Under the pieces are notes generated by a model. The model saw only the letters and a list, made by a program, of their open reading frames with translations, was not told the DNA's origin and searched no databases. A program made the translations under genes and the position numbers. Shown piece by piece: positions 6,893 through 23,447 of a stretch of 25,481 nucleotides of DNA. Position 1 is the stretch's first letter; each line of letters starts with the position of its first letter. The DNA comes from a bacterium (lineage in GTDB: Bacteria; JAJVIF01; JAGGVT01), in contig JAGGVT010000088.1 in assembly GCA_021157815.1 (NCBI GenBank), forward strand, positions 1 to 25,481, written 5' to 3'.

Positions 6893-7164
6893 CCGAGCCT
6901 CGAACGTGAGTGAGAGGTAGTAACAATGGCCACATACCCCTCACTAATGAGCCTGTCGGGAAAGGCGTCGCAAACAAGAAGCCCCCACCCCAGCCCTCCC
7001 CGCGAGCGGGGAGGGAGAGTGTTGTTTCTCCTCTTCGATAGTATAAAATCAGATATATTGTTTATAATGTAAAAAAAAATCTCCCCCCGCTCGCGGGGGG
7101 ATTAAGGGGGGGGATGAGATATAAAAATGACTTTTCCCGACAGGCTCTAACATTCGAGGCTCGG
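6893..7164. repeat. R1 inverted-repeat element, copy 1 (MITE-like)
   Basis: The outer arms 6893-6907 and 7150-7164 are inverted repeats (CCGAGCCTCGAACGT against ACATTCGAGGCTCGG, one mismatch). The inner arms 6949-6965 and 7131-7147 are inverted repeats of GAGCCTGTCGGGAAA(R)G. Between them lie two GC-rich hairpins (6994-7015, arms CCCTCCCCG/CGGGGAGGG; 7083-7100, arms CCCCCCGC/GCGGGGGG) separated by an AT-rich spacer. The inner 200 bp recurs at 15721-15929. There is no open reading frame of merit inside. It occupies most of the 526-bp gap between two lipoprotein genes. Confidence 0.8.
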
Positions 7165-12748: not shown

Positions 12749-12990
12749 TGTGGTGCGGGCTTCCATGGGCTTTTGAAAAAGGGATAGATTTTAACGTAAC
12801 CCGGAATGCCTTTATAAAAAAGCATAAATCAATTCTACAACGTTCGCAGGCATTCCGGGATTGCGCATATCTACCCACTTCCCCGGCATGCCTGATTCAC
12901 CTTATAGATAATTGTTGATTTTGTTCGGGACGGCATGACCGGGTTACGGTGGATATAACCTTTTTCAACAGCCGCTTCCAGCCTGCATCC
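12749..12990. repeat. R5 repeat arm, interrupted by R4
   Basis: TTGTGGTGCGGGCTTCCA (ending 12765) joined to GCCTGCATC (from 12981) rebuilds a sequence close to the intact R5 arm at 21503-21530 (TTGTGGTGCGGGCATCCT then GCCTGCATC). The R4 element 12766-12973 interrupts it. Only one arm of R5 is recognisable here. Confidence 0.55.
12766..12973. mobile_element. R4 inverted-repeat element, long divergent copy
   Basis: About 208 bp. The left end GGGCTTTTGAAAAAGG and the right end (reverse complement GGCTGTTGAAAAAGG) are inverted, and the similarity extends inward to a shared CGTAACCCGG. A further internal pair is CCCGGAATGCC (about 12799-12809) with GGCATTCCGGG (12849-12859). The element is flanked by GCTTCCA at 12759-12765 and 12974-12980, read as a 6-7 bp target duplication. 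No coding region. With R5 it fills the 353-bp gap after the secretin gene. Confidence 0.7.
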
Positions 12991-13020
12991 GGTTTGATGT
13001 ATTTTGAATGCAACATGGTA

Positions 13021-13431
13021 TCAATCGCCAGACTGCTCTTCAGCACGAGTTTCGCCGGAGGCAATTCGACGCGCTTCATCAAGAGAATCGACAAACAGAA
13101 TATGAAGGTCAAGAGATGTAATCTTGAAAACCCTTTTAACCGTCTTCTGCGGAGTCAATATCATCAACTGCCCTCCCCGGTCTTTGGTATGCTTATGAAT
13201 CCCGACAAACACGCCAAGCCCCGCCGAGTTGATATATGACACATCGCTCATGTCGCAAACAATGAAGTTGTCCTTGTCTTCAATGTTTGCGATAAATACA
13301 TTCCTGAGTACAGGAGCGCCGTTGACATCAAGATCCCCCTGCATTTTGCAAATAACCAGGCGCTCTTCTCTTTCCACTGTTGCGGAGAATGGTGCTCTTT
13401 GTGTACTCTTTTCCGTTTTCATAATATCCAT
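13021..13431 (-). CDS. STAS-domain protein (anti-sigma factor antagonist type)
   Basis: 136 residues from the ATG at 13431; a TTG at 13452 (2 nt after the jag stop) and an ATG at 13422 are alternative starts, and none has a strong ribosome site. A single STAS domain covers about residues 15-115: ICKMQGDLDVNGAPVLRN, then IVCDMSDVSYINSAGLGVFV, in which Ser69 of NSAG matches the phosphorylated serine of SpoIIAA/RsbV-type antagonists, then GGQLMILTP and KRVFKITSLD. The tail (EARRIASGETRAEEQSGD) is charged. Such proteins bind an anti-sigma kinase; no kinase or sigma factor gene is adjacent here. It is the last gene of the minus-strand block and is probably translated from the jag transcript. Confidence 0.85.
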   Translation of the reverse strand: MDIMKTEKSTQRAPFSATVEREERLVICKMQGDLDVNGAPVLRNVFIANIEDKDNFIVCDMSDVSYINSAGLGVFVGIHKHTKDRGGQLMILTPQKTVKRVFKITSLDLHILFVDSLDEARRIASGETRAEEQSGD

Positions 13432-13454
13432 ATCGTTAGTTTTGTACGCCAACC

Positions 13455-13985
13455 TTAATTTACCATGAAATCATGGCCTTTGTCATTATTAGCCGGTAAA
13501 ATAATCACTCTTCGATTGTTTCCCTCACCACGTGATTCTGATCTGACATCGACAAGGTCCCTGCACAGAATGTGGATTGTTTTTCTATCAGAGGGTGACA
13601 TCGGGTCGAGTGGCACCTCATCGTTCGTGCTGATCACAGCATCCCTTGCGCTGAACAGAATTTTCGAGAGAACGTTTTTCTTTTTCTCCCTGTATCCCTG
13701 AGCATCAAGGACAAGCTGTTTTGAATTGTCATGGCGTTTTCGATGCACAATGTTCAGAATAAACTCAAGGGCCTCCAGAGTCTGTCCATGCCTGCCGATT
13801 ACCAGGCCAAGATTGTTGCCATGAATTTCCAGAAAGATATTTTCATCCTGCTCATGATAGAAAACCTGCGCATCAATTCCCATACCCTCCAATATCCGGC
13901 TAAGTTCATCCATCGCAATCTGAGCTTGATTTATATCAGGTTTATTTTCGTATGCTTCGCTTCCAGGTTCGAAATTATCTTGCAC
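13455..13985 (-). CDS. jag: Jag/KhpB-type RNA-binding protein (KH + R3H)
   Basis: 176 residues from a GTG at 13985, preceded by AAGGAGG at 6 nt; upstream in-frame ATGs lie inside or before this ribosome site and are unlikely starts. A KH domain covers about 45-95, with VIGRHGQTLEALEFI carrying the GxxG loop. An R3H domain covers about 117-166 (PMSPSDRKTIHILC, with Arg134 and His138, then VRSESRGEGNNRRVIILP). The usual Jag_N domain is missing, so the protein is shorter than the Firmicutes form (about 200 or more). In many bacteria jag follows yidC directly; here a 555-bp gap with an R2 repeat separates them. It is thought to bind RNA and influence envelope growth and membrane-protein biogenesis. 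Confidence 0.9.
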   Translation of the reverse strand: MQDNFEPGSEAYENKPDINQAQIAMDELSRILEGMGIDAQVFYHEQDENIFLEIHGNNLGLVIGRHGQTLEALEFILNIVHRKRHDNSKQLVLDAQGYREKKKNVLSKILFSARDAVISTNDEVPLDPMSPSDRKTIHILCRDLVDVRSESRGEGNNRRVIILPANNDKGHDFMVN

Positions 13986-14298
13986 ATTATTCCTCCTTAC
14001 CATTGGATAAATAGTAAAAATCACGAGATTATGACATCGAAGCCATTGCTCCGCTTGCCGTAAAACTCATATTCATAATTCTTAATACTAAAAGCAAGCA
14101 AGTGTTTTGGATAGTGAGGAGTGTTTTTCCCCTCATTCCCAAAGTTAACATACAAAATTTCCATGTAAAAATCAAGCAGGTTTTCTGTAAAATCTGCGAT
14201 TGATAAATATGCAAAAGCATATTTTTGATAGAGTCTCTGTCTTAATGGGATTCCTAAGCAGTGTGGAGGGGAATTAGAATAATCCAAGTGTGCGTAAA

Positions 14299-14500
14299 GC
14301 AGGGGTCGTGGCAATAAAGGTGTCTCAGAATATCATGTTTTCTGTCATTCTGAACGAAGTGAAGAATCTATTCGCGATAACATAAATATTTCTTAATGGA
14401 TATAATCACCAACACAGTAGCATATAGATTCTTCGCTGCGCTCAGAATGACAATGTATCCTGTTTAAATCAAAGTTCTAAGACATTTACCAGGCAGCGCC
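14299..14500. repeat. R2 inverted-repeat element, copy 1
   Basis: The core 14344-14451 is 108 bp. The termini GTCATTCTGAACGAAGTGAA and (reverse complement of the right end) GTCATTCTGAGCGCAGCGAA continue identically into GAATCTA, 24 of 27 matching. Outer arms extend the inverted repeat: GCAGGGG...TGTCTCAGAA on the left and TTCTAAGACA...CAGCGCC on the right. The same 108-bp core occurs in inverse orientation at 18629-18736. It sits in the yidC-jag gap. The remainder, 13986-14298, holds no convincing gene. Confidence 0.8.
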
Positions 14501-14540
14501 CAACGATAACAGCGCTGATTCACGTTCTTTCGCAAACAAT

Positions 14541-15404
14541 TTATTTACGGCGTTTTTTCTTGCGTTTTTTGGGTGGAGGCGGTGGTTTGGCTGCATCCTT
14601 TTCAATTTCCACAGAATCGCCTTTGGCTTTGAGAATATCATCCGCTTTTCGAATGGAAGCGTACTGCTGCATCTGGAATAGATTCGACAATGCAAAATAA
14701 AGAAGCAGTCCGATAGGGAAAATAAGACCGAACCACAGGAAAAGAGGAAGCATGAAATTCATCTGGCTCGACTGGCCCTGCGTATTCTGCGCCTGCATCT
14801 GTTTCGTCTGCAGGATTGTTGTCACGATATAAACCACGAAAAGAGGCAGCGCGGGAAGATAAAGAAACTTGTCCATGAGAAATGGAGTGTTTATCAGGCT
14901 TCCCATGTCAATCATTCCGGGGAGTGATTCGATGTTGGGAAAGGGCGCGCTTTCATATGCTCGAACGGTTAGCTTCGCGCCGAACATTGACGCCTGCCCG
15001 AATCCCGGCAGAAGATTATAAAATCGGGGGCTTCTTAGAACCCAGAAAAGGCTGATAAGAATCGGCATCTGGATTAGCATTGGGAAACAGCTCATGAATG
15101 GATTGACATTGTGCTTCTTGTACAACTCCATCATTTGCTTCTGCTGTTCCTGCGCTTTTCTCTGTTTCTCCTCAGCGTTATCATCCGGATTTGCTTTGAA
15201 TTCCTCCTGAAGTTCCTTCATCTGGGGCTGGATTTCGTTCATTTTTTTCATCGTCTTTGTCTGCATACGATTGACAGGACTGATGACAAGTCGAACGAGC
15301 ATCGTGAGAAGGATAATATCAATCCAATATGTATGGGTAACACTGTGGAAAATACTTATCATGGTCACCATTATTGAAGCGAGAAAATCAATTGTTGCGC
15401 TCAT
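14541..15404 (-). CDS. yidC: Membrane protein insertase YidC (short form)
   Basis: 287 residues. It lacks the large periplasmic domain of proteobacterial YidC and corresponds to the Oxa1-type core. Hydrophobic segments lie near 24-44, 105-125, 181-198 and 217-243. Arg38 in MLVRLVISPVNRMQ matches the groove arginine. A long charged cytoplasmic hairpin (about 50-98, MKKMNEIQPQMKELQEEF, then EEKQRKAQEQQKQ) follows, then NPFMSCFPMLIQMPI. The tail is a basic PPPPPKKRKKKRRK stretch, typical for ribosome contact. AGGAGG lies 11 nt before the ATG. The start overlaps the yidD stop in TAATG, which indicates translational coupling. The N-terminus may begin without a classical signal peptide, as is usual for the short form. 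Confidence 0.95.
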   Translation of the reverse strand: MSATIDFLASIMVTMISIFHSVTHTYWIDIILLTMLVRLVISPVNRMQTKTMKKMNEIQPQMKELQEEFKANPDDNAEEKQRKAQEQQKQMMELYKKHNVNPFMSCFPMLIQMPILISLFWVLRSPRFYNLLPGFGQASMFGAKLTVRAYESAPFPNIESLPGMIDMGSLINTPFLMDKFLYLPALPLFVVYIVTTILQTKQMQAQNTQGQSSQMNFMLPLFLWFGLIFPIGLLLYFALSNLFQMQQYASIRKADDILKAKGDSVEIEKDAAKPPPPPKKRKKKRRK

Positions 15405-15646
15405 TAATCGGGTTTCCTCCTGGTGTTTCGCGGGAGGGGGACCGGATCATATCCGCCCGGATTGAATGGATTGCATCTGATTACTCTATATGTTGCCAGA
15501 AAAGTTCCCTTGAGAAACCCATGTATCTTTAATGCCTCGCAGGCGTATTCACTGCACGATGGATAAAATCTGCAGGATGGCGGTGTCAGCGGCGAGATGT
15601 ACCGCTGGTAGATTCTTATGATAAAGATGAATATTTTCGCAACCAT
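15404..15646 (-). CDS. yidD: Membrane protein insertion efficiency factor YidD
   Basis: 80 residues with the full family signature: [20 protein letters not shown], then SEYACEAL, then [14 protein letters not shown]. The N-terminal hydrophobic/amphipathic helix would associate with the inner membrane. The conserved cysteines (CRFYPSC and RCNP) are present. It is coupled to yidC by a 1-nt overlap. The usual direct junction with rnpA is broken here by a 311-bp gap containing an R1 element. Confidence 0.95.
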
Positions 15647-15720
15647 GTTACTCGCTATCCAAACCAGTTAATTCTCTTGTTTGATAAAAAATGCAACGAG
15701 AAATTATAGCAAATCTGAGC

Positions 15721-15929
15721 AGAGGGTTTAATAGCATATCGGAAAAGCTTTCGCAAACAAGTCGCCCCCACCTCACCCCTCCCCGCGAGCGGGGAGGAAG
15801 AATGTTGCCTCTCCCCTTCGCAAGGATATATACCGGATATATTATTTACAAATAAAAAAAATCTCCCCCCGCTCGCGGGGGGATTAAGGGGGGAAGAGAT
15901 ATCAAAACTAACCTTTCCCGATACCCTCT
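15721..15929. repeat. R1 inverted-repeat element, copy 2
   Basis: It has the same architecture as 6949-7147: GCAAACAAG, a pyrimidine-rich stretch, a hairpin CCTCCCCG/CGGGGAGG (about 15778-15796), an AT-rich spacer, a hairpin CCCCCCGC/GCGGGGGG (about 15865-15882) and GATTAAGGGGGG. The right terminus AACCTTTCCCGATACCCTCT pairs with the left terminus AGAGGGT...ATCGGAAAAG, where the left copy carries about 10 extra bases. It sits between rnpA and yidD. A 99-codon open frame across it is a by-product of the repeat. Confidence 0.75.
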
Positions 15930-15957
15930 TAAACCATCTGCTATTCAAAAGCATGTA

Positions 15958-16302
15958 CTAAATGGTTTGTTTTATCAAATTCGATTTCCTCAGCAAATCG
16001 ACAAGCGTGTCCTGCACATAACGCATACGATTAATATCAGGGGCGCGCCGTACAAATACCACAATGTCAAATCCCGGTTCAATCTCATACGACATCGTTC
16101 TGAATGACTCCTTGAGAAACCGTCGGATTCTGTTTCGGTTAACCGCAAGCCGTACCGCTTTTTTCGGAATGACAAAGCCCGTTCGATTGAATCCAAGGTT
16201 GTTTTTCAAAACTCGCAGTTGAAGATACCCGCTGCCAAACCGTTTTCCCTTCCGGGATACGCGTTCAAAGAGAATTCTGCCCCTTAGTGAGGCTGGTTTC
16301 AT
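15958..16302 (-). CDS. rnpA: Ribonuclease P protein component
   Basis: 114 residues. It contains the RNR motif region [17 protein letters not shown] (about 53-69), the preceding [11 protein letters not shown], and [11 protein letters not shown]. It binds the RNase P RNA for tRNA 5' maturation. The ATG overlaps the rpmH stop codon in ATGA (16299-16302), so translation is coupled. The N-terminus [15 protein letters not shown] matches the expected position of the family start. Length is normal. Confidence 0.95.
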
Positions 16303-16454
16303 TTTTTGTAACGCTCATCCGAAACTGTGAGTTTTTTACGGCCTCTCGCACGCCTTCGGCTAAGAACCCTTCGGCCCGCTTTGGTTGCCATCCTGGATCT
16401 GAAGCCATGGCATTTGGCTCTCTTGCGTTTCTTTGGTTGATATGTCCGTTTCAT
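16299..16454 (-). CDS. rpmH: 50S ribosomal protein L34
   Basis: A 51-residue ORF read directly from the minus strand: [18 protein letters not shown], then [20 protein letters not shown], then [13 protein letters not shown]. This is the full L34 pattern, with a slightly longer C-terminus than the usual 44-46 residues. Its stop overlaps the rnpA start. GTGGAG lies about 10 nt before the ATG. In most bacteria dnaA lies divergently upstream; here ridA does, so no origin signal is expected or seen. Confidence 0.97.
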
Positions 16455-16471
16455 TTAGTCAACAACTCCAC

Positions 16472-16498
16472 AAAAAAATTGCCCGTATCCCGGTACGG
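16472..16498 (-). terminator. Terminator-like hairpin in the rpmH leader
   Basis: On the minus strand GCCGTA-CCGGGA-TACGGGC (one bulge) is followed by AATTTTTTTG and then, within 20 nt, the rpmH ribosome site. It may end ridA transcripts, or attenuate rpmH if transcription starts at the promoter just upstream. Confidence 0.5.
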
Positions 16499-16509
16499 CG
16501 CAATCGGAA

Positions 16510-16518
16510 ATTATAACA
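16510..16518 (-). promoter_or_regulatory. Extended -10 promoter for rpmH operon
   Basis: TGTTATAAT on the minus strand is an extended -10 with perfect TATAAT; the -35 is poor. It lies in the 95-bp ridA-rpmH gap, so the predicted start (about 16503) precedes the hairpin at 16472-16498. Confidence 0.5.
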
Positions 16519-16549
16519 TATCCTGTCGAAAATACATCAGGATATTCAA

Positions 16550-17011
16550 TTATTCCATTATTTCAATTATCGCATCTATCTCGACCGGTGAATTCAGCGG
16601 AAGTGAATTGACACCCATGACCGCGCGAGTGTGCTTGCCAATGTCGCCAAAGACCTCTACAAACAGGTCGCTTGCGCCGTTAATTACATTTGGCTGCATG
16701 GTAAAATCATCGCTGCACTGGACAAATCCATTCAAGCGAACAATCCGTTTGACCTTCGCCAAATCCCCTATCTCGCCCTTGATTGCCGCCATGATATTTA
16801 TCGCGGCTATTTTCGCTGCTTCATAGCCATCCTCAATGCTTAAATCAACTGGAACTTTACCCTCGAATATGAGTTTGCCGTCGCGGATTGGAAGATTTCC
16901 AGAGATGAAAATGTAATTGCCGACTCGAAGCGAGGGGACATAACTCGCGAGCGGTTTGGCGGTTTCGGGCAGTTCAATCCCAAGTTCCCTGAGTTTATCT
17001 GATGGGTTCAT
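16550..17011 (-). CDS. RidA-family (YjgF/UK114) protein
   Basis: 153 residues, with AAGGA 8 nt before the ATG. The RidA fold is indicated by VGNYIFISGNLPIRDGK, EGKVPVDLSIEDGYEAAKIAA, KVKRIVRLNGFVQ, then KHTRAVMGVNSLPLNSPVEIDAI, in which Arg129 matches the catalytic arginine of RidA. RidA hydrolyses reactive enamine/imine intermediates from PLP enzymes in the cytosol. The longer N-terminus (LRELGIELPETAKP) puts it in the ~150-residue subgroup rather than the ~125-residue archetype, whose substrate range is less certain. It lies 95 bp upstream of rpmH on the same strand, separated by a hairpin and a promoter, so it is probably a separate transcript. Confidence 0.88.
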   Translation of the reverse strand: MNPSDKLRELGIELPETAKPLASYVPSLRVGNYIFISGNLPIRDGKLIFEGKVPVDLSIEDGYEAAKIAAINIMAAIKGEIGDLAKVKRIVRLNGFVQCSDDFTMQPNVINGASDLFVEVFGDIGKHTRAVMGVNSLPLNSPVEIDAIIEIME

Positions 17012-17182
17012 TTTACTATTCCTTAATTATGTGAATGTCTTTTAAAATTTGATATTAGCATGATGTGTATGATTGATTCAAGGATAAATGAATGGCAGAT
17101 GGTTTTAGAGGATGTCGGGAAAGCGCAATTATTGGCGACTGATACCATTTAGTTGTTCTTAAATCAGACTAAGTATGATAGT

Positions 17183-17297
17183 CCGTCATTCCCGCGAAAG
17201 CGGAAATCCATTTTTCTTTGCAGAAGAGTTGACGCCTCTCATTTTTAAATGGATCTCTGAGGACAGACTAAAAAAACCGCTTTCGCGGGAATGACGG
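17183..17297. repeat. R3 inverted-repeat element, copy 1
   Basis: 115 bp. Perfect 21-bp terminal inverted repeats lie at 17183-17203 and 17277-17297, starting CCGTCATTCCCGCGAAAG. A second inner pair is ATCCATTT / AAATGGAT. The ATTCCC-spacer-GGAAAT arrangement recalls the dRS3-type repeats of Neisseria (ATTCCCN8GGGAAT), a resemblance only. A solo R1-like terminus (GATGTCGGGAAAGC) lies at about 17111-17124. The rest of the 511-bp gap holds only a possible -10 (TATAAT, 17430-17435) for pfkA. Confidence 0.85.
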
Positions 17298-17522
17298 GTT
17301 AATTGCCGAATAAGAATTTCAGTTGCCAATTTTGTTTTTTACCCTCTGCCTTCCTACTACCCTTGCTGAAATATTGTGGAAATCGAAAGATTTAATCAAA
17401 CTTAATAGATTTAATCCCATTTTATGGTTTATAATCTGACGGAATTTCTTTGCTTTGAACATATCATGTAAAAAAGACGATTCTAATTATATGTAAACGA
17501 TTATCGTACCTGGAGAATCAGG

Positions 17523-18530
17523 ATGACCAAGAACAGCACCGGCAAATCGAAGAAGAAAATGCCTGAGGGCTTTAATAATGTTGCCTTATTGACCAGCGGC
17601 GGGGATGCTCCCGGGATGAATCCATGCATACGAGCTGTTGTTCGAACGGGAATATATCACGGTTTCGCGATGTTTGGCGTGAAAAACGGTTACGAGGGAC
17701 TTATTAGCGGTGATATTGACCAATTAGGTTCAAGAGATGTGGGCGGTATTCTCCATCGCGGAGGCACGATTCTTGGAACAAGCCGTTGCCCTGAATTTTT
17801 GAAGGATAAAACACAAATTCAAGCTATTGCCAGCATGAAAGCTCATCGAATAGATGGGCTGATTGTTATCGGTGGAGAGGGTTCACTTCACGGTGTGGAG
17901 GATCTAATTAAAAAGGGATTTCCTGTTATCGGAGTACCGGCAACAATCGACAATGATGTCAACAAAACCGACTATGCAATCGGATTCGATACGGCCGTGA
18001 ATACTGTTCTTGAAGCGATATACAAACTTAGAGATACTGCCGCGTCTCATCGGAGAATAATTGTGCTGGAAACGATGGGACGTGACGCGGGGCATATCGC
18101 GCTTTCCGCCGGATTGGCTGGTGGCGCTGAAATTATCCTGACGCCTGAAAAGAAACTCAGCATGGATGAGATTAATGACATGGTCCAGCAGTGTATCAAC
18201 CTGCATAAACTGTTTACCATGATTGTTCTTGCTGAGGGCGCAGGTAACGCTTTTGAAATATCTGATGAAATAAAAAAGAAATCCGGGCATGAGGTCTCGA
18301 CAACCGTTCTGGGTTATATCCAGCGAGGCGGCACTCCGACCGCTTTTGATACGCTTCTTGCAAGCCAAATGGGCGCTCTTGCAATTGATGGTTTTCTGCA
18401 GGGGGAAAATGCTATGATGACATCATTCATGGATGGGAAATACCAGCTGGTACCCATAAAGGATGTTCTCCAAAAGCAGAAAGAACTTAACCACGATCTT
18501 TACGAGCTGTATAAGATTCTTGCGTTGTAA
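17523..18530 (+). CDS. pfkA: 6-phosphofructokinase, ATP-type
   Basis: 335 residues, ATG preceded by GGAG at 7 nt. Motifs: LLTSGGDAPGMN (about 23-33), GGTILGTSRCPEF (80-92), VIGGEGSLHG (115-124), PATIDNDV (139-146), GFDTAVNTVLEAI, METMGRDAG-type VLETMGRDAGHIAL (181-194), LAEGAG (236-241) and GYIQRGGTPTAFD (264-276). It phosphorylates fructose 6-phosphate in glycolysis. The glycine after the acidic residue of GGEGS (GGDGS in E. coli PfkA) is retained, where PPi-dependent enzymes have aspartate (GGDDS), and the lysine of the PPi-type PKTIDND is alanine. Both favour ATP. Glu in place of Asp in GGDGS is unusual. An N-terminal extension of ~18 residues is basic. It is monocistronic; no strong terminator follows, and repeats begin within 30 bp. 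Confidence 0.93.
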   Translation: MTKNSTGKSKKKMPEGFNNVALLTSGGDAPGMNPCIRAVVRTGIYHGFAMFGVKNGYEGLISGDIDQLGSRDVGGILHRGGTILGTSRCPEFLKDKTQIQAIASMKAHRIDGLIVIGGEGSLHGVEDLIKKGFPVIGVPATIDNDVNKTDYAIGFDTAVNTVLEAIYKLRDTAASHRRIIVLETMGRDAGHIALSAGLAGGAEIILTPEKKLSMDEINDMVQQCINLHKLFTMIVLAEGAGNAFEISDEIKKKSGHEVSTTVLGYIQRGGTPTAFDTLLASQMGALAIDGFLQGENAMMTSFMDGKYQLVPIKDVLQKQKELNHDLYELYKILAL

Positions 18531-18557
18531 CAAAACGTTTTTCGAATACTCATACCC

Positions 18558-18596
18558 TTGTGCCTGCCCTTGGAACAGCATAAATACAGGGCAACC
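18558..18596 (-). repeat. Truncated R4 fragment
   Basis: The reverse complement reads GGTTGCCCTGTATTTATGC, then GGGCAGGCACAAG, matching the centre of R4 copies (compare GGTTGCCCTGTATTTATGCC from 23161 and GGCAGGCACAGAG from 19943). No R4 termini are present. It abuts the R2 copy 2. Confidence 0.6.
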
Positions 18597-18762
18597 ATCT
18601 CAGAACCTTATTATATGCGTGAAACACTGTCATTCTGAGCACAGCGAAGAATCTATATGCTACTGAGCCGGCGATTATATATGATGATAAACACTTACAT
18701 TATCGCGAATAGATTCTTCACTACGTTCAGAATGACAGAAAATATGGAGTTCTGAGACAGCT
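18597..18762. repeat. R2 inverted-repeat element, copy 2
   Basis: The core 18629-18736 (108 bp) is the inverse-orientation homologue of 14344-14451: GTCATTCTGAGCACAGCGAA on one side and its counterpart TCACTACGTTCAGAATGAC on the other. Outer arms ATCTCAGAACC and GGAGTTCTGAGACAGC flank it. It ends 3 bp before the DUF5320 stop codon, so it would be transcribed into that operon's 3' end. Confidence 0.8.
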
Positions 18763-18765
18763 TCC

Positions 18766-19149
18766 CTACTCGTCACCCGATTTTTTCTCCAGCTCTGTTA
18801 TTCGGCTCAGAATCTCTTTCAGAGTATTTTCAAGATACCCCGCCTGTTGCTTGAGATCCTCAATCTGGATTTCATTGGGTACATCAGGATATATCGGCTG
18901 AACCGGGGTGGGAGCTGCTACCATTCCACGTTGCCAACCATATTGGCCGGTTGCGTAGAACATGTTTCTATAGCCGCGTCCTCCGCCTCTGCCCATACCG
19001 CCTCCACGTCCCATGCCTCTTCCGAATCCCATATAACTTCCCCCTATCGGGTTCGTGCTTCCCGGAGTGCTGTATCCTGAGCAGTATCCAAGTCCTCTTC
19101 CAGTTCTTGATCCTCCACCTCTCGGTCCTGATCTGTCACCACCTGGCAT
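18766..19149 (-). CDS. DUF5320-type glycine-rich protein
   Basis: 127 residues from the ATG at 19149, preceded by AGGAAGG at about 8 nt; an in-frame GTG at 19158 is inside the ribosome site. The N-terminus MPGGDRSGPRGGGSRTGRG then GYCSGY matches the DUF5320 family, which begins MPxGDxTGP and has a GYC motif. A Gly/Arg/Met-rich middle (MGRGMGRGGG-type, about 45-65) is followed by a C-terminal coiled coil (about 95-125, LKQQAGYLENTLKEILSRIT). In anaerobes these genes cluster with NifX/NifB-type cofactor proteins, as here. The biochemical role is not established. The gene is 54 bp downstream of the NifX-type gene and likely in its operon. Confidence 0.8.
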   Translation of the reverse strand: MPGGDRSGPRGGGSRTGRGLGYCSGYSTPGSTNPIGGSYMGFGRGMGRGGGMGRGGGRGYRNMFYATGQYGWQRGMVAAPTPVQPIYPDVPNEIQIEDLKQQAGYLENTLKEILSRITELEKKSGDE

Positions 19150-19203
19150 ATTAATCACCTTCCTGTATTGTTAATTAAATTTACAAAATATTTAAAGAAA
19201 ATA

Positions 19204-19611
19204 TTACCGATTCCTGTTTCCACGACCACGACCTTGACCTTGACCTTGACCGCCGCTTCTGTGTTTGCGTCCCCGCCCGCGGCATCCGGGCATACGAAAA
19301 TTCCTGTTATCAAGGCTGTTACTTATATAACCATCCAAGACCGAATTGATATCGCCCATCGTTCCGCTTATCACGTTGATGTCCCATCTCATTAATAGAG
19401 AAACCATAATTCCCGAGATACCGCCGCAGATTAGAACATCCACTTTCCTTTCAGCAAGATAATTCGCTCTATTATTTAAAGAGCTGTTGGGAATTCTTTC
19501 CTCCGACATCTGTGTAATTTGGCCATTGGCAACATCAGCGATAACGATTCTTTCCGCTGTGTCAAAAAGCGGTGATACTCTTTGCTGCCATGTCGGTATA
19601 GCAATTCTCAT
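19204..19611 (-). CDS. NifX/NifB C-terminal-type (dinitrogenase Fe-Mo cofactor biosynthesis family) protein
   Basis: 135 residues. Residues 1-100 match the small NifX-like fold: MRIAIPTWQQRVSPLFDTAE, VIADVANGQI, then AERKVDVLICGGISGIMVSLL and WDINVISGTMGD. The remaining ~30 residues are Gly/Arg/Gln-rich (GGQGQGQGRGRGNRNR), a low-complexity tail resembling that of the neighbouring DUF5320 protein. Related small proteins (e.g. ORP of Desulfovibrio) bind metal-sulfur clusters; binding here is inference. The gene starts only ~6 nt after the start site predicted by the sigma-54 promoter, with no clear Shine-Dalgarno, so a very short leader is possible. No nifHDK or MinD-like ATPase genes are adjacent. 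Confidence 0.82.
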   Translation of the reverse strand: MRIAIPTWQQRVSPLFDTAERIVIADVANGQITQMSEERIPNSSLNNRANYLAERKVDVLICGGISGIMVSLLMRWDINVISGTMGDINSVLDGYISNSLDNRNFRMPGCRGRGRKHRSGGQGQGQGRGRGNRNR

Positions 19612-19626
19612 TACATATCTTTAAAT

Positions 19627-19644
19627 TAGCAATTGTGATGCCAA
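19627..19644 (-). promoter_or_regulatory. Sigma-54 (-24/-12) promoter of the NifX-type gene
   Basis: The minus strand reads TTGGCATCACAATTGCTA: TGGCAY-N5-TTGCW with exactly 10 bases between GG and GC. It lies 16 bp before the ATG, on the side facing the sigma-54 activator gene. Confidence 0.8.
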
Positions 19645-19727
19645 AATTGTTTAAATCGGTGAAATACTTGAAATCACGATAAATACAGGCGTTTTGAGAT
19701 AGATTTTCAGAAATGCGCTTTGGGGGA

Positions 19728-19744
19728 AGTCGCATTATGCGACT
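19728..19744. promoter_or_regulatory. Palindromic upstream activator site candidate
   Basis: AGTCGCATTATGCGACT is a perfect 17-bp palindrome (8-bp arms, one central base). Its centre is about 95 bp upstream of the -24 element, the usual distance for enhancer sites bound by Fis-type sigma-54 activators. A weaker half-site-like ATGCGC is at about 19713. Confidence 0.55.
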
Positions 19745-19810
19745 GATATGTCATTTTACAGTTGCAGAAGAGGATTATCGAAAGGATAAAAAATATCCAG
19801 TTAATTTGTG

Positions 19811-20006
19811 CTGCAGGCATCCTGCCTGCATCTATTTACATCTCAAGATTGCAGGCAGGATGGGCTTGTTGAAAAAGCTTGTTTTATCCCGAACCGTAGG
19901 GGCAGCCCTCTGTGGCTGCCCTGTATTTACAGCAAACCTAAAGGCAGGCACAGAGACCTGCACCTACATAATTAGGTTTTCAACAGTCCCAGGATGCCTG
20001 CATCAC
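19811..20006. repeat. R5 repeat, interrupted by R4
   Basis: The left arm TGCAGGCATCCTGCCTGCA (19812-19830) and the right arm, split as GCAGGCAGGATG (19851-19862) plus CCTGCATCAC (19997-20006), are inverted. Removing 19863-19990 and one AGGATG restores the arm. Confidence 0.75.
19863..19990. mobile_element. R4 inverted-repeat element inserted in R5
   Basis: 128 bp. Left end GGCTTGTTGAAAAAGC, right end (reverse complement) GGGACTGTTGAAAACC. It is flanked by an exact 6-bp duplication AGGATG at 19857-19862 and 19991-19996. It contains hairpins GGGCAGCC/GGCTGCCC (19900-19907 with 19914-19921) and GCAGG/CCTGC (19944-19948 with 19957-19961). No coding region. It lies between the sigma-54 activator stop and the putative activator site. 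Confidence 0.8.
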
Positions 20007-20021
20007 AACAATTTCCTGTTT

Positions 20022-21377
20022 TCATTTTACGGGGCGCTTAATATCAAAGCGCTCAACCTTACGATAAAGAGTCGATTTATGAACGCCGAGCTCATCGGCT
20101 GTCTTCTTGAAATTCCAGTCGTTTCTATCCAGAGCATCGCGAATAATGTAAATCTCGATCTCATCAAGTGTCGCAGTGTGTGAGATTTTATTTACGGCTT
20201 TTTGTTTTCTGGAAATCAGCGATTCGGGAAGGTGTTTGGTTTCTATTACACCGCTGTGGCATAAAACAAATGCGCGTTCGATTATGTTCTCCAATTCGCG
20301 CACATTCCCGGGATAATCATGCGACATGAGTACGCTCATGGTGTCATCTGAAATCCCGGCAATATCCTTTCCCTGCAGGTGATTGAACCGGCTAATGAAA
20401 TGACCTGCCAGAATGGGGATATCCTCGCGGCGCTCTCTGAGCGGCGGAAGAGTAATCCTGACGATGTTTACCCTATAATATAAATCCTGCCTGAACGTTC
20501 CATTCTCGACCAGTTTGTCAATGTCGCGATTTGTCGCGGCGATTATCCGCGCTTCAGTTTTGGCGCTTTCGGTTGCGCCAAGAGGCTCATACATTTTTTC
20601 CTGCAGTACTCTGAGAAGACGCACCTGCATTGATTGGGAGATGTCGCCGATTTCATCAAGGAAAAGAGTGCCTTTTCCAGCAAGCGCAAATCGTCCCGGC
20701 TTGTCCTGGTGAGCATCCGTGAAAGCTCCTTTTTTATAGCCGAACAGTTCGGATTCAAGCAGCGTATCAGGAAGCGCGGCGAGATTTACCGCGATAAAAG
20801 GCTCATCGACTCGATTGCCAAGATTGTGAATAGCCCGTGCAATCAGTTCCTTGCCAGTGCCGCTTTCGCCATCGATTAGTACGGTAGCCGATGACGCCGC
20901 TATCTCAGGCAGTATGTTGAATATCTCCTGTATTTTATGGTTGCGTGAGACAATATCGCCGAGAGAGTATTTTTTATCAATCTCCTTTCGAAGATTCTCA
21001 ACGAGAGTTAAATCGCGAAATGTTTCAACTCCGCCGATTACATTTCCTTTGTTGTCTTTTAATAAGGCGGTGGAGATGCTTACAGGAATGCGGTTGCCAT
21101 CGATATCGACAATATAGATCATTTTTCCAACGACAGGTTTTCCGGTTTTGATTGTTTCCCTCAAGGCGCATTGTGTTTCACAGATTGACGCTTTGAAAAC
21201 ATCGCAGCATCGCTGTCCGATTGCCTCCTTTTTGGTTACGCCTGTAATCGTCTCAGCTGAGGCGTTGAATGACTGAATGAGCCAGTTATCATCGACGGTG
21301 AAAACGCCATCCGCGATTGAATCAAGGATGATTGAATTGATATCGGGTTGAGTTGCTTTTTGCGACTTTGGCTTCAT
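20022..21377 (-). CDS. PAS-domain sigma-54-dependent transcriptional activator (PAS-AAA+-Fis)
   Basis: 451 residues. A PAS domain (about 10-125) contains a cysteine group CCDVFKASICETQC (57-70) that could hold a cofactor or sense redox. The AAA+ domain has Walker A GESGTGKE (170-177), GAFTDA (217-222; usual GAFTGA), Walker B GTLFLDEIGD (236-245) and the FRQDLYYRVN region. A Fis-type helix-turn-helix follows at about 415-445 (DWNFKKTADELGVHKSTLYRKV). It would remodel sigma-54 RNA polymerase at the NifX-type promoter (19627-19644). A TATAAT (21393-21398) lies 16 nt upstream of the ATG, so the leader is very short and the ribosome site weak. The layout resembles the Desulfovibrio ORP locus, where such an activator controls NifX-type genes. 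Confidence 0.92.
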   Translation of the reverse strand: MKPKSQKATQPDINSIILDSIADGVFTVDDNWLIQSFNASAETITGVTKKEAIGQRCCDVFKASICETQCALRETIKTGKPVVGKMIYIVDIDGNRIPVSISTALLKDNKGNVIGGVETFRDLTLVENLRKEIDKKYSLGDIVSRNHKIQEIFNILPEIAASSATVLIDGESGTGKELIARAIHNLGNRVDEPFIAVNLAALPDTLLESELFGYKKGAFTDAHQDKPGRFALAGKGTLFLDEIGDISQSMQVRLLRVLQEKMYEPLGATESAKTEARIIAATNRDIDKLVENGTFRQDLYYRVNIVRITLPPLRERREDIPILAGHFISRFNHLQGKDIAGISDDTMSVLMSHDYPGNVRELENIIERAFVLCHSGVIETKHLPESLISRKQKAVNKISHTATLDEIEIYIIRDALDRNDWNFKKTADELGVHKSTLYRKVERFDIKRPVK

Positions 21378-21436
21378 TTTGCGTCCGCTACTATTATACT
21401 CGGTTTTTGTAGGAATTACTGAAATCTCATTAAATT

Positions 21437-21457
21437 AATTTGTACCGGGTACGAATT
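21437..21457. repeat. R6 palindrome, copy 1
   Basis: AATT-T-GTACCGGGTAC-G-AATT, a 21-bp near-perfect palindrome. Similar copies lie at 21580-21600 and 21687-21707. No other copy was seen in the window. Confidence 0.7.
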
Positions 21458-21510
21458 AAATTGACCTGTTTTATACTTTGGATTGGAAATTACATGAAGT
21501 TGTTGTGGTG

Positions 21511-21574
21511 CGGGCATCCTGCCTGCATCTTGAGATGTAACTTAAGATGTTGATAGATGCAGGCAGGATGCCCG
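21511..21574. repeat. R5 repeat, intact copy
   Basis: A perfect 20-bp inverted repeat CGGGCATCCTGCCTGCATCT (21511-21530) with its complement at 21555-21574 around a 24-bp spacer. It provides the reference for the two R5 copies interrupted by R4. Confidence 0.85.
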
Positions 21575-21579
21575 AAATT

Positions 21580-21600
21580 AATTTGTACCCGGTACGAATT
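21580..21600. repeat. R6 palindrome, copy 2
   Basis: AATT-T-GTACCCGGTAC-G-AATT, directly after the intact R5 copy and directly before the trpS remnant. Confidence 0.7.
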
Positions 21601-21611
21601 AATTTACATGG

Positions 21612-21684
21612 CATTGCTGAGGCAAAAAAATAGTGAAACAAAGATAAATAGGGTGCTTAGCGGAAATCATTCCACAGGACAAAA
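21612..21684 (+). pseudogene. Decayed partial copy of the trpS 5' end
   Basis: The sequence aligns with the leader and first ~20 codons of the intact trpS at 21787-21865: CATTGCTGAGGC against CATTGCCGAGGC, then, after a 1-nt deletion near the start codon, translation reads ETKINRVLSGNHSTGQN against EIKKKRVLSGNRPTGPS. The start codon is lost (ATA in place of ATG) and the copy stops at the R6 palindrome at 21687. It is probably the remnant of a tandem duplication. Confidence 0.75.
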
Positions 21685-21686
21685 TC

Positions 21687-21707
21687 AATTCGTACCCGGT
21701 ACCAATT
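21687..21707. repeat. R6 palindrome, copy 3
   Basis: AATT-C-GTACCCGGTAC-C-AATT, immediately after the trpS remnant and about 98 bp before the intact trpS start. Confidence 0.7.
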
Positions 21708-21804
21708 TATATAAAGCGATTGCGTGAATTCATCTGCACTGTTATATTTGCATGATGCAGTATGTTTATGAAATCAGTTTTCGAGACATTGCCGAGGCGA
21801 AACG

Positions 21805-22848
21805 ATGAGCGAAATAAAGAAGAAACGAGTGCTAAGCGGAAACCGTCCAACAGGCCCAAGCCATCTGGGACACCTTTTCGGTGTGCATGATTTCTGGGTA
21901 AGCCTTCAGGACAAGTACGACTGCTTCTTCTTCATCGCGGACTACCACGCACTGACAACGTCATACGACAAGGTTGAAATGATTCAGGACAATATTCGCG
22001 AGGTAACACTCGACCTTCTCGGCGCGGGACTCGACCCGAAAAAATCGACCATTTTTTTGCAGAGTGACATTCCTGAAGTCGCAGAGTTGAATCTTCTAAT
22101 ATCCATGGTTACTCCAATGGGACTGCTTGAGCGCAATCCGACATACAAAGCCCAAATGCAGGAATTGAATATCAAAAAACCAAACCTTGGGCTTTTCCAG
22201 TATCCGGTAATCCAGACAGTCGATATCGTCATTTACAAAGGTGAATATGTTCCCGTAGGGAAGGATCAACTCCCGCATGTGTGGATTGCCGCTGATATAG
22301 CGAAAACATTCAGGCATCGCTACGGCGATATTTTCCCGATACCTGAGGAACTTGTCGGGGAATTTCCAAATGTTCCGGGCAGTGACAACAGAAAGATGTC
22401 CAAATCGTACGGCAACACAATTGATGTCCGCGATGATGAGGAAACCACATTCAAGAAAATCAAGAAATTCTATACTGACCCGGAAAAGATTCGCATCGAT
22501 GATCCGGGGCATCCTGATGGCTGCCCGATTTTCTATTTCCACACGATGGTCTCCGGCAAAGAGCATTGTGATAATGTCAAATCGGAATGTGAAAGCGGCA
22601 AGCGCGGATGTGTCCAGTGCAAGAGCGAAATGTGCGAGAATCTTAATAATCATTTGAAACCGATCCGTGAGCGCAGGACGGAATTTGCCCGGAATCCGGA
22701 TGAGGTTGATAAAATCCTTCTCGAGGGCGGATTAAAAGCTCGGGAAGAAGCGCAGAAAACGGTCCAGGCTGCTCGCAAGGCGATGGGCCTGACTGAACGT
22801 TCGAGGCTTATTCAAACGCCGACCATAAAATACAAATTTATTAAATAG
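21805..22848 (+). CDS. trpS: Tryptophanyl-tRNA synthetase, putative iron-sulfur type
   Basis: 347 residues, a class I synthetase that charges tRNA-Trp. GAGG lies 7 nt before the ATG. The HIGH-type motif is PSHLGH (18-23) after SGNRPTG, and KMSKS is at 197-201 (SDNRKMSKSYGN). The tryptophan pocket region QYPVIQTVDIVIYKGEYVPVGKDQ is typical. In the C-terminal helical part there are cysteines 240, 262, 269 and 272 (C-x21-C-x6-C-x2-C), nearly the C-x22-C-x6-C-x2-C pattern that ligates a [4Fe-4S] cluster in Thermotoga maritima TrpRS; Cys255 and Cys277 are extra. Length is normal. It is monocistronic. The upstream 400 bp hold three R6 palindromes, an R5 repeat and a decayed 5' copy of this gene. 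Confidence 0.95.
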   Translation: MSEIKKKRVLSGNRPTGPSHLGHLFGVHDFWVSLQDKYDCFFFIADYHALTTSYDKVEMIQDNIREVTLDLLGAGLDPKKSTIFLQSDIPEVAELNLLISMVTPMGLLERNPTYKAQMQELNIKKPNLGLFQYPVIQTVDIVIYKGEYVPVGKDQLPHVWIAADIAKTFRHRYGDIFPIPEELVGEFPNVPGSDNRKMSKSYGNTIDVRDDEETTFKKIKKFYTDPEKIRIDDPGHPDGCPIFYFHTMVSGKEHCDNVKSECESGKRGCVQCKSEMCENLNNHLKPIRERRTEFARNPDEVDKILLEGGLKAREEAQKTVQAARKAMGLTERSRLIQTPTIKYKFIK

Positions 22849-22940
22849 CTGTTCAAATAATCCTCATTTTCAGAAATGATGAGTCTTTTGCAGGGGCGCC
22901 GCTTGGAATCTGCCTCAAAACCTGCAAACAGAAAGAAAAA

Positions 22941-23255
22941 CGTCATTCCCGCGAAAGCGGGTTCTTTAGTCTGTCCTCAGAAATCCAATTATTTCTTTAT
23001 TCAGACTATCGTACAGGTCTTTCCATTCCTGATTAAATCTATCATTCAACTCAATCTTTCATGCATCGTCTTATAATCGAATCAGAAGAAAAATAGATTC
23101 CCGCTTTCGGGGCTGTTGAAAAAGCCTATTATATCCCAGACCGTAGGGGCAACTCTCCGTGGTTGCCCTGTATTTATGCCAATATTTAGGGTAGGCACAG
23201 AGACCTACCACCTACATCCAGCCCTTTTTCAACAGGCCCTTTCACGGGAATGACG
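22941..23255. repeat. R3 inverted-repeat element, copy 2, interrupted by R4
   Basis: The left end CGTCATTCCCGCGAAAGCGG (22941-22960) is followed by TAGTCTGTCCTCAGA, matching the reversed copy 1. The right end is split as CCCGCTTTC (to 23108) and ACGGGAATGACG (23244-23255). Removing the R4 element restores CCCGCTTTC(R)CGGGAATGACG. Confidence 0.8.
23110..23238. mobile_element. R4 inverted-repeat element inserted in R3
   Basis: 129 bp. Left GGGCTGTTGAAAAAG, right (reverse complement) GGCCTGTTGAAAAAG. Flanked by CTTTCG (23104-23109) and CTTTCA (23239-23244), a 6-bp duplication with one change. Hairpins: GGGCAACT/GGTTGCCC (23147-23154 with 23161-23168) and GGTAGG/CCTACC (23190-23195 with 23204-23209). 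About 75-80% alike by eye to 19863-19990. Confidence 0.8.
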
Positions 23256-23447
23256 TGTTATTCAACCTAATGGTGGTAATCGAATGTAAGAAAGGGATTC
23301 CGACCATTCGCTTCTCGAATATCCTGAGCGGAATCGAATGGGGCGAATGTCGGAATGACGAACTATATATGTTTTGATGATGTTCTGAGACGCTTTCCAA
23401 GCAACGCCCCTGCATCAAAGCAAGCAGATGATATATACATTTACATT

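What the first reader, a model, noticed from the sequence alone, without database searches (positions are those of the whole stretch)
12759..23244. R4: a small element found three times, each time inside another repeat, with ~6-bp target duplications
R4 copies at 19863-19990, 23110-23238 and 12766-12973 share GGGCTGTTGAAAAAG-type inverted ends. Direct flanks are AGGATG/AGGATG, CTTTCG/CTTTCA and GCTTCCA/GCTTCCA. In all three, deleting the element plus one flank rebuilds a known palindromic repeat (R5, R3, R5). That is direct sequence evidence of transposition-like insertion, and of a preference for arms of palindromes. No transposase is encoded in the window, so the element would be mobilised in trans.
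Basis: seen in the sequence. Interest (0 to 1): 0.75.

Follow-up and report, generated by a model that had tools for sequence, protein, structure and literature searches.

The report
Tiny transposons nested in DNA hairpins
The three repeats are members of a large family of miniature, gene-less transposons that probably borrow the enzyme of an IS1182-type insertion sequence and land almost exactly at the tip of DNA hairpins, copying the few bases around the hairpin loop at each end.

Summary
R4 is a MITE family of three subfamilies: 128 bp, 129 bp, and about 208 bp. The 208-bp form shares only the ends with the other two. Its end motif CTGTTGAAAAAG occurs 161 times exactly, against 1 for the reversed control. 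However, an internally deleted IS1182-family transposase gene on contig 90 has the same left end (24 identical bases), and intact rhizobial relatives (about 48% identical) carry GGGGCTGTTGAAGAA ends.

The insertion rule is sharper than "arms of palindromes". In 51 clean copies the duplicated core is 4, 5 or 6 nt (26, 20, 5 copies). Its length goes with the hairpin type, and in 47 of 51 its centre lies on the dyad axis of the restored hairpin. Flanking stem pairing is 6.5 of 8 positions, against 2.0 at random sites. A further 12 copies have inverted flanks, as if the top of a larger hairpin had been lost.

IS1272, also IS1182-family, is known to target hairpins but replaces them and makes no duplication. 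Loop duplication was only a hypothetical pathway in that paper. R4 is therefore a new variant of a known kind. The trans-acting transposase and the hairpin intermediate are inferred, not shown.

The parts
12766..12975 (+). R4c element (208 bp between GGGC/GCCG plus one terminal base each side)
   Evidence: ends GGGCTTTTGAAAAAG / CTTTTTCAACAGCCG; relatives genome-wide
12761..12765 (+). left target duplication TTCCA (within CTTCCA)
12976..12980 (+). right target duplication TTCCA (within CTTCCA)
12749..12990 (+). R5-type hairpin (TGCGGGC[TTCCA]GCCTGCA) split by R4c
   Evidence: restored site tggtgcgggc[TTCCA]gcctgcatcc
19862..19990 (+). R4a element
   Evidence: ends GGGCTTGTTGAAAAAG / GTTTTCAACAGTCCC
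19857..19861 (+). left target duplication AGGAT
19991..19995 (+). right target duplication AGGAT
19806..20003 (+). R5 composite palindrome; left hairpin intact (19816-19826), right hairpin holds R4a
23109..23239 (+). R4b element
   Evidence: ends GGGGCTGTTGAAAAAG / CTTTTTCAACAGGCCC
23105..23108 (+). left target duplication TTTC (loop of CCCGC-TTTC-GCGGG)
23240..23243 (+). right target duplication TTTC
22937..23260 (+). R3 composite palindrome; left hairpin CCCGCGAAAGCGGG intact at 22948-22961, right hairpin holds R4b
17183..17297 (+). R3 copy without R4 in either arm (unoccupied paralogous site)
21505..21574 (+). R5 copy without R4 (both hairpins intact; unoccupied paralogous site)

Best explanation
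R4 is a family of non-autonomous miniature transposons (MITEs) moved in trans by an IS1182-family DDE transposase that chooses its target by DNA hairpin structure. Shown from sequence: shared 16-nt ends GGGGCTGTTGAAAAAG; a deleted IS1182-family copy with the same left end in the same genome; insertion centred on the dyad of hairpins with a 4-6-nt duplication whose length goes with the target hairpin type; use of unrelated hairpin sequences, both arms and both orientations. Inferred: the transposase acts on an extruded cruciform or single-stranded hairpin, and the element's two 3' ends attack the two strands at the edges of the apical loop. The loop is thus left single-stranded on both sides and is duplicated by fill-in. 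The 12 inverted-flank copies arose either by recombination between R4 copies in the two arms of one composite palindrome, or by the hairpin-replacing outcome known for IS1272.
For: End motif CTGTTGAAAAAG: 79+82 exact hits against 1+0 for the reversed control. Three subfamilies at 92-96% mean identity to consensus. Of 51 clean duplications: core 4 nt x26 (all GAAA/TTTC hairpins), 5 nt x20, 6 nt x5; duplication centre equals dyad centre in 47/51; paired flanking positions 6.53/8 against 2.02/8 at 20,000 random positions; at least 6/8 paired in 39/51 against 0.5% at random. Three hairpins whose loops are not closed by C.G (GCCGCA[GTAGCC]TGCGGC, TAGGGTGGAT[TTAAA]ATCTACCCTA, GCTGGT[TTCTA]ACCGGC) fix the element ends as GGGG/CCCC. 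Distal flanks are unrelated among copies (116 flanks, only same-locus overlaps) and both arms and orientations are used, so these are separate insertions, not copies of one composite. Contig 90 IS1182 remnant (993 bp): left 24 nt identical to R4b, right end TTTCAACAGCCCC, NCBIfam IS1182 E=1.2e-32 and PF13751. Intact rhizobial IS1182 elements, about 48% identical in transposase, have ends GGGGCTGTTGAAGAA/TTCTTCAACAGCCCC.
Against: No intact transposase with these ends is in the 91%-complete assembly, so current activity is unproven. The rhizobial relatives with the same ends insert with 5-bp duplications, mostly at a conserved spot in IS256-type transposase genes beside a GGCAGCGCTGCC-like palindrome and not at a hairpin tip, so hairpin-tip targeting is not a general property of this end type. 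For the 5- and 6-nt cases the duplicated core is the computed minimal loop plus one base pair on each side, so 'TSD = loop' holds only to within one pair. All evidence is from sequence; cruciform use is not demonstrated.
Confidence: 0.82

Rival explanations
1. Duplex-sequence targeting: the transposase recognises symmetric double-stranded palindromic sequence (for example C-N4-6-G in a G+C-rich dyad) as many DDE transposases do, without any extruded hairpin.
For: Most targets share C.G at the loop edges; ISRm22 inserts at the palindromy axis of REP sequences with a fixed 6-bp duplication (PMC1525189).
Against: A fixed-geometry strand-transfer complex gives one duplication length; here three lengths occur and each follows the hairpin type. 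Targets with A.T or T.A loop edges and unrelated sequence are also used. IS1272 of the same family is reported to recognise structure without sequence consensus.
Confidence: 0.25
2. Composite repeats: R4 inserted only a few times into R3/R5, and the R3+R4 or R5+R4 composites were then multiplied by the R3/R5 mobility system (the genome has nine Y1/HUH transposase genes).
For: R3/R5-type hairpins are numerous and REP-like; Y1 transposases are present.
Against: R4a and R4b are found in R3, in R5 and in other hairpins, and R4c in R5 and other hairpins (with two inverted-flank copies in R3); both arms and both orientations are used; distal flanks are unrelated; empty R3/R5 paralogues are common.
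Confidence: 0.07
3. R4 is a REP/REPIN-type sequence moved by a RAYT (HUH) enzyme.
For: Small, palindromic, intergenic, high copy; Y1_Tnp genes in the genome.
Against: Clear target duplications and long TIRs shared with a DDE IS remnant. The four Y1 loci scanned for host repeats showed no R3/R5 match; they were not scanned for R4 ends.
Confidence: 0.03
4. For the 12 inverted-flank copies only: hairpin replacement by transposition (the IS1272 outcome) and not recombination between two R4 copies.
For: An intact IS1182-family IS in another genome sits between GGGGTCAAGTCTTTAC and its exact reverse complement, and others show inverted flanks; replacement is documented for IS1272.
Against: In the R3 and R5 cases the breakpoints sit at the two arm-hairpin tips, which double insertion plus recombination predicts; L010 carries R4 in both arms of one R3-like repeat, a candidate intermediate.
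Confidence: 0.4

Closest known systems
IS1272 / TnSha1 (IS1182 family, Staphylococcus)
   Same: IS1182-family transposase; targets stem-loops rather than a sequence (PMC5678879, PMC4923244).
   Different: IS1272 removes the stem-loop with blunt cuts and makes no target duplication; R4 mostly keeps the hairpin and duplicates the loop region (4-6 nt). R4 is non-autonomous.
IS1182-family IS of Sinorhizobium/Bradyrhizobium/Novosphingobium plasmids
   Same: Same terminal inverted repeat GGGGCTGTTGAA(A/G)AAG (GGGGTCGTTGAAAAAG in Bradyrhizobium) and a related transposase (about 40-50% identity).
   Different: Autonomous, 5-bp duplication, mostly inserted at one conserved place in IS256-type transposase genes next to a short palindrome, not at a hairpin tip.
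MITEs of ISMac2 (IS1182) in Methanosarcina acetivorans
   Same: MITEs assigned to an IS1182 element, 160-169 bp, 25-26-nt ends, 4-bp duplication for one of two families (PMC3852290).
   Different: No hairpin-tip targeting is described in the passages read.
ISRm22, ISPsy8 and IS1397-type REP-targeting insertion sequences
   Same: Insert into repeated extragenic palindromes; ISRm22 and ISPsy8 at the symmetry axis (PMC1525189).
   Different: Other transposase families, one REP type per IS, fixed duplication length (6 bp for ISRm22, 3 bp for ISPsy8).

Membership tests
MITE (non-autonomous DDE transposon derivative) | Short, no transposase gene, terminal inverted repeats, multicopy | tested here: met
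   128-210 bp, 16-nt ends, 71 copies assigned to the three subfamilies; no transposase-like ORF seen in the window (read by eye)
MITE (non-autonomous DDE transposon derivative) | Target-site duplications | tested here: met
   52 of 88 flanked TIR pairs with clean duplications
MITE of an IS1182-family IS | Ends shared with an IS1182-family element | tested here: met
   contig 90 remnant, left 24 nt identical to R4b; 3' terminal TTTCAACAGCCCC; NF033551, PF05598, PF13751 matches
MITE of an IS1182-family IS | An intact autonomous partner in the same genome | tested here: inconclusive
   only internally deleted copies assembled; the assembly is 91% complete and breaks at repeats, so an unassembled intact copy is possible
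MITE of an IS1182-family IS | Transposase acts on R4 ends | not testable with these tools
   needs an in vivo or in vitro assay
IS1272-type hairpin-replacing transposition | Target is a hairpin | tested here: met
IS1272-type hairpin-replacing transposition | Hairpin removed, no duplication | tested here: not met
   most copies duplicate the loop region; 12 copies have inverted flanks compatible with replacement or recombination
REP/REPIN (RAYT-mobilised) | No target duplication | tested here: not met
   duplications present
REP/REPIN (RAYT-mobilised) | Y1/HUH partner gene flanked by the repeat | not tested
   nine Y1_Tnp genes exist; four of their loci were scanned for the host repeats R3/R5 only, without a match

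The most novel reading that the evidence does not exclude
R4 documents a natural, high-copy case of structure-directed DDE transposition in which the stagger of the strand attack, and hence the duplication length, is set by the loop of a DNA hairpin. This is the 'loop duplication' pathway drawn only as a possibility for IS1272. Together with the whole-hairpin duplication seen in Rhizobium sp. Q54 and the inverted-flank (replacement) cases, it suggests that IS1182-family enzymes can use one hairpin-recognising mechanism with three outcomes.
Probability: 0.45. Interest if true: 0.65.

Novelty: new variant of a known kind. Interest (0 to 1): 0.5.

Why it matters
Most DDE transposases make a duplication of fixed length. 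A family whose duplication length follows the hairpin it hits would be a clear sign of hairpin recognition in vivo, and would give a large natural data set for testing whether cruciforms form in bacterial chromosomes. It also explains why repeats are nested within repeats in this genome: the palindromic repeats serve as landing sites for the MITE.

Tried and rejected
C64:1139-2574, a TIR pair 1.4 kb apart, looked like an autonomous IS but spans a glycosyltransferase-like gene. The C155 transposase is an IS5/IS1182-like gene with different ends (GGTACCGTTGCAAAA). Search of relatives: R4b is absent from the three other held genomes of the phylum; close transposase relatives are absent from the relatives searched and from named genomes except distant Neisseria/Haemophilus hits at about 32%. 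Rfam and tRNA scans of the window: nothing. TIR pairs with 6 or more total mismatches were excluded from the duplication statistics as possible chance pairs. A survey of intact IS1182-family loci for a further example of loop duplication (read by eye) gave inverted-flank cases but no clear second loop-duplication case.

Full report
CHECK. The three R4 copies are real. They represent three subfamilies that share 15-16-nt inverted ends. R4a (window 19862-19990) and R4b (23109-23239) are about 80% identical over their first 98 nt. R4c (12766-12975, 208 bp) shares only the ends. In the whole genome (3.2 Mb, 221 contigs) the end core CTGTTGAAAAAG has 161 exact matches, against 1 for the same word read backwards. 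Subfamily searches give 14 R4a copies of at least 93% identity, at least 40 R4b copies of at least 95% (the listing is capped) and about 20 near-full R4c copies. Many copies lie at contig ends, so the true number is probably higher.

INSERTION RULE. From 100 fetched stretches plus the window and two transposase-search loci, 88 TIR-bounded pairs with at least 30 nt on both sides were tabulated. Of these, 52 have a clean direct duplication, 12 have inverted flanks, and 24 are mutated, hybrid or chance pairs. Three insertions into hairpins whose loop is not closed by C.G show that a G at the left and a C at the right belong to the element: GCCGCA[GTAGCC]TGCGGC, TAGGGTGGAT[TTAAA]ATCTACCCTA and GCTGGT[TTCTA]ACCGGC. 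The ends are therefore GGGGCTGTTGAAAAAG. With that reading, 51 copies have duplicated cores of 4 nt (26, all in CCCGC-GAAA/TTTC-GCGGG-type hairpins), 5 nt (20) or 6 nt (5). The centre of the duplication coincides with the dyad axis of the restored hairpin in 47 of 51. On average 6.5 of the 8 flanking positions pair, against 2.0 at 20,000 random positions. The window copies follow the rule: TTCCA, AGGAT and TTTC. DNA folding places the core on the apical loop, exactly for the 4-nt class and as loop plus one pair per side for the 5- and 6-nt classes. If the G/C edges are instead assigned to the target, the three lengths become mostly 6, 7 and 8; the variation with target type stands either way.

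INDEPENDENCE. R4a and R4b occur in R3, in R5 and in other hairpins; R4c occurs in R5 and other hairpins, and in R3 only as two inverted-flank copies. Both arms and both orientations are used, and sequences 400-900 nt away are unrelated between copies. Unoccupied R3 and R5 hairpins exist in the window (17183-17297, 21505-21574) and in the fetched stretches (24 perfect R3 and 13 perfect R5 hairpin cores). These are paralogous empty sites. Orthologous ones could not be tested, because no close relative is held.

PARTNER. Contig 90 holds a 993-bp internally deleted IS1182-family element. Its left 24 nt are identical to R4b, its right end is TTTCAACAGCCCC, and it matches NF033551, PF05598 and PF13751. 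Contig 56 holds a second, more truncated copy. Both lie against sequences resembling hairpin half sites used by R4 elsewhere (read by eye). Intact IS1182-family elements on rhizobial and sphingomonad plasmids have a related transposase (about 48% identity in the best cases) and the same ends. This makes IS1182-family mobilisation in trans the best-supported reading; activity today is not shown.

MECHANISM. For IS1272 of the same family, two papers report hairpin targets, loss of the hairpin and no duplication (PMC5678879, PMC4923244). [quoted passage not shown] R4 fits the last. In a small survey, an IS1182-family element in Rhizobium sp. Q54 is flanked by two copies of a whole ~24-nt hairpin. 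Other intact elements have inverted flanks compatible with replacement. The 12 inverted-flank R4 copies could be replacement events, or products of recombination between R4 copies in both arms of one composite palindrome; L010 carries R4 in both arms. I did not resolve this.

WHAT IS KNOWN AND WHAT IS NEW. Insertion at the symmetry axis of repeated palindromes is known for ISRm22 and ISPsy8 (PMC1525189), and hairpin targeting is known for IS1272. A MITE family with tens of insertions whose duplication length follows the hairpin is, in the papers I could search, not described; most subscription literature and the ISfinder pages were not available, so this is not a priority claim. Verdict: a new variant of a known kind.

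Noticed in passing
L162 (Rhizobium sp. Q54, LR606150.1), about 920-2510: An IS1182-family element is flanked on both sides by the complete hairpin ACCTCCGGTGGCTCCCACCGGAGG, i.e. a ~24-bp duplication of a whole stem-loop.
   Followed up: partly
L152/L173 (G170:C7), L171, L175, L184: Intact IS1182-family elements lie between inverted flanks, e.g. GGGGTCAAGTCTTTAC ... GTAAAGACTTGACCCC, as if the hairpin top had been replaced.
   Followed up: partly
L141, L143-L151, L157: Alphaproteobacterial IS1182-family elements (and L151 from another genome) repeatedly sit at the same codons (RVHFMRN-like motif) of what look like IS256/Mutator-type transposase genes (PF00872 confirmed for L145 only), beside a GGCAGCGCTGCC-like palindrome, with 5-bp duplications.
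   Followed up: partly
window 21432-21712: Three copies of a ~31-bp palindromic sequence AAATTAATTTGTACC(C/G)GGTACGAATTAATTT surround an intact R5; possible regulator sites or another repeat.
   Followed up: no
window 14317-14482 and 18598-18763: A 166-bp repeat in inverted orientation (81%) with TGTCATTCTGA...TCAGAATGACA ends; just before the second copy, 18578-18597 carries 20 nt complementary to R4b interior (23160-23179), perhaps a truncated R4.
   Followed up: no
window 6950-7111 and 15733-15893: A ~160-bp repeat (81-100% in parts) containing G+C-rich inverted segments, in two apparently intergenic regions.
   Followed up: no
L044, L056, L066, L070, L116: A further hairpin repeat, in several copies ending (G)TAGCGCTG...CAGCGCTAC, is also an R4/IS target; it resembles GTAG-tagged REPs, and the genome holds nine Y1 transposase genes.
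   Followed up: partly
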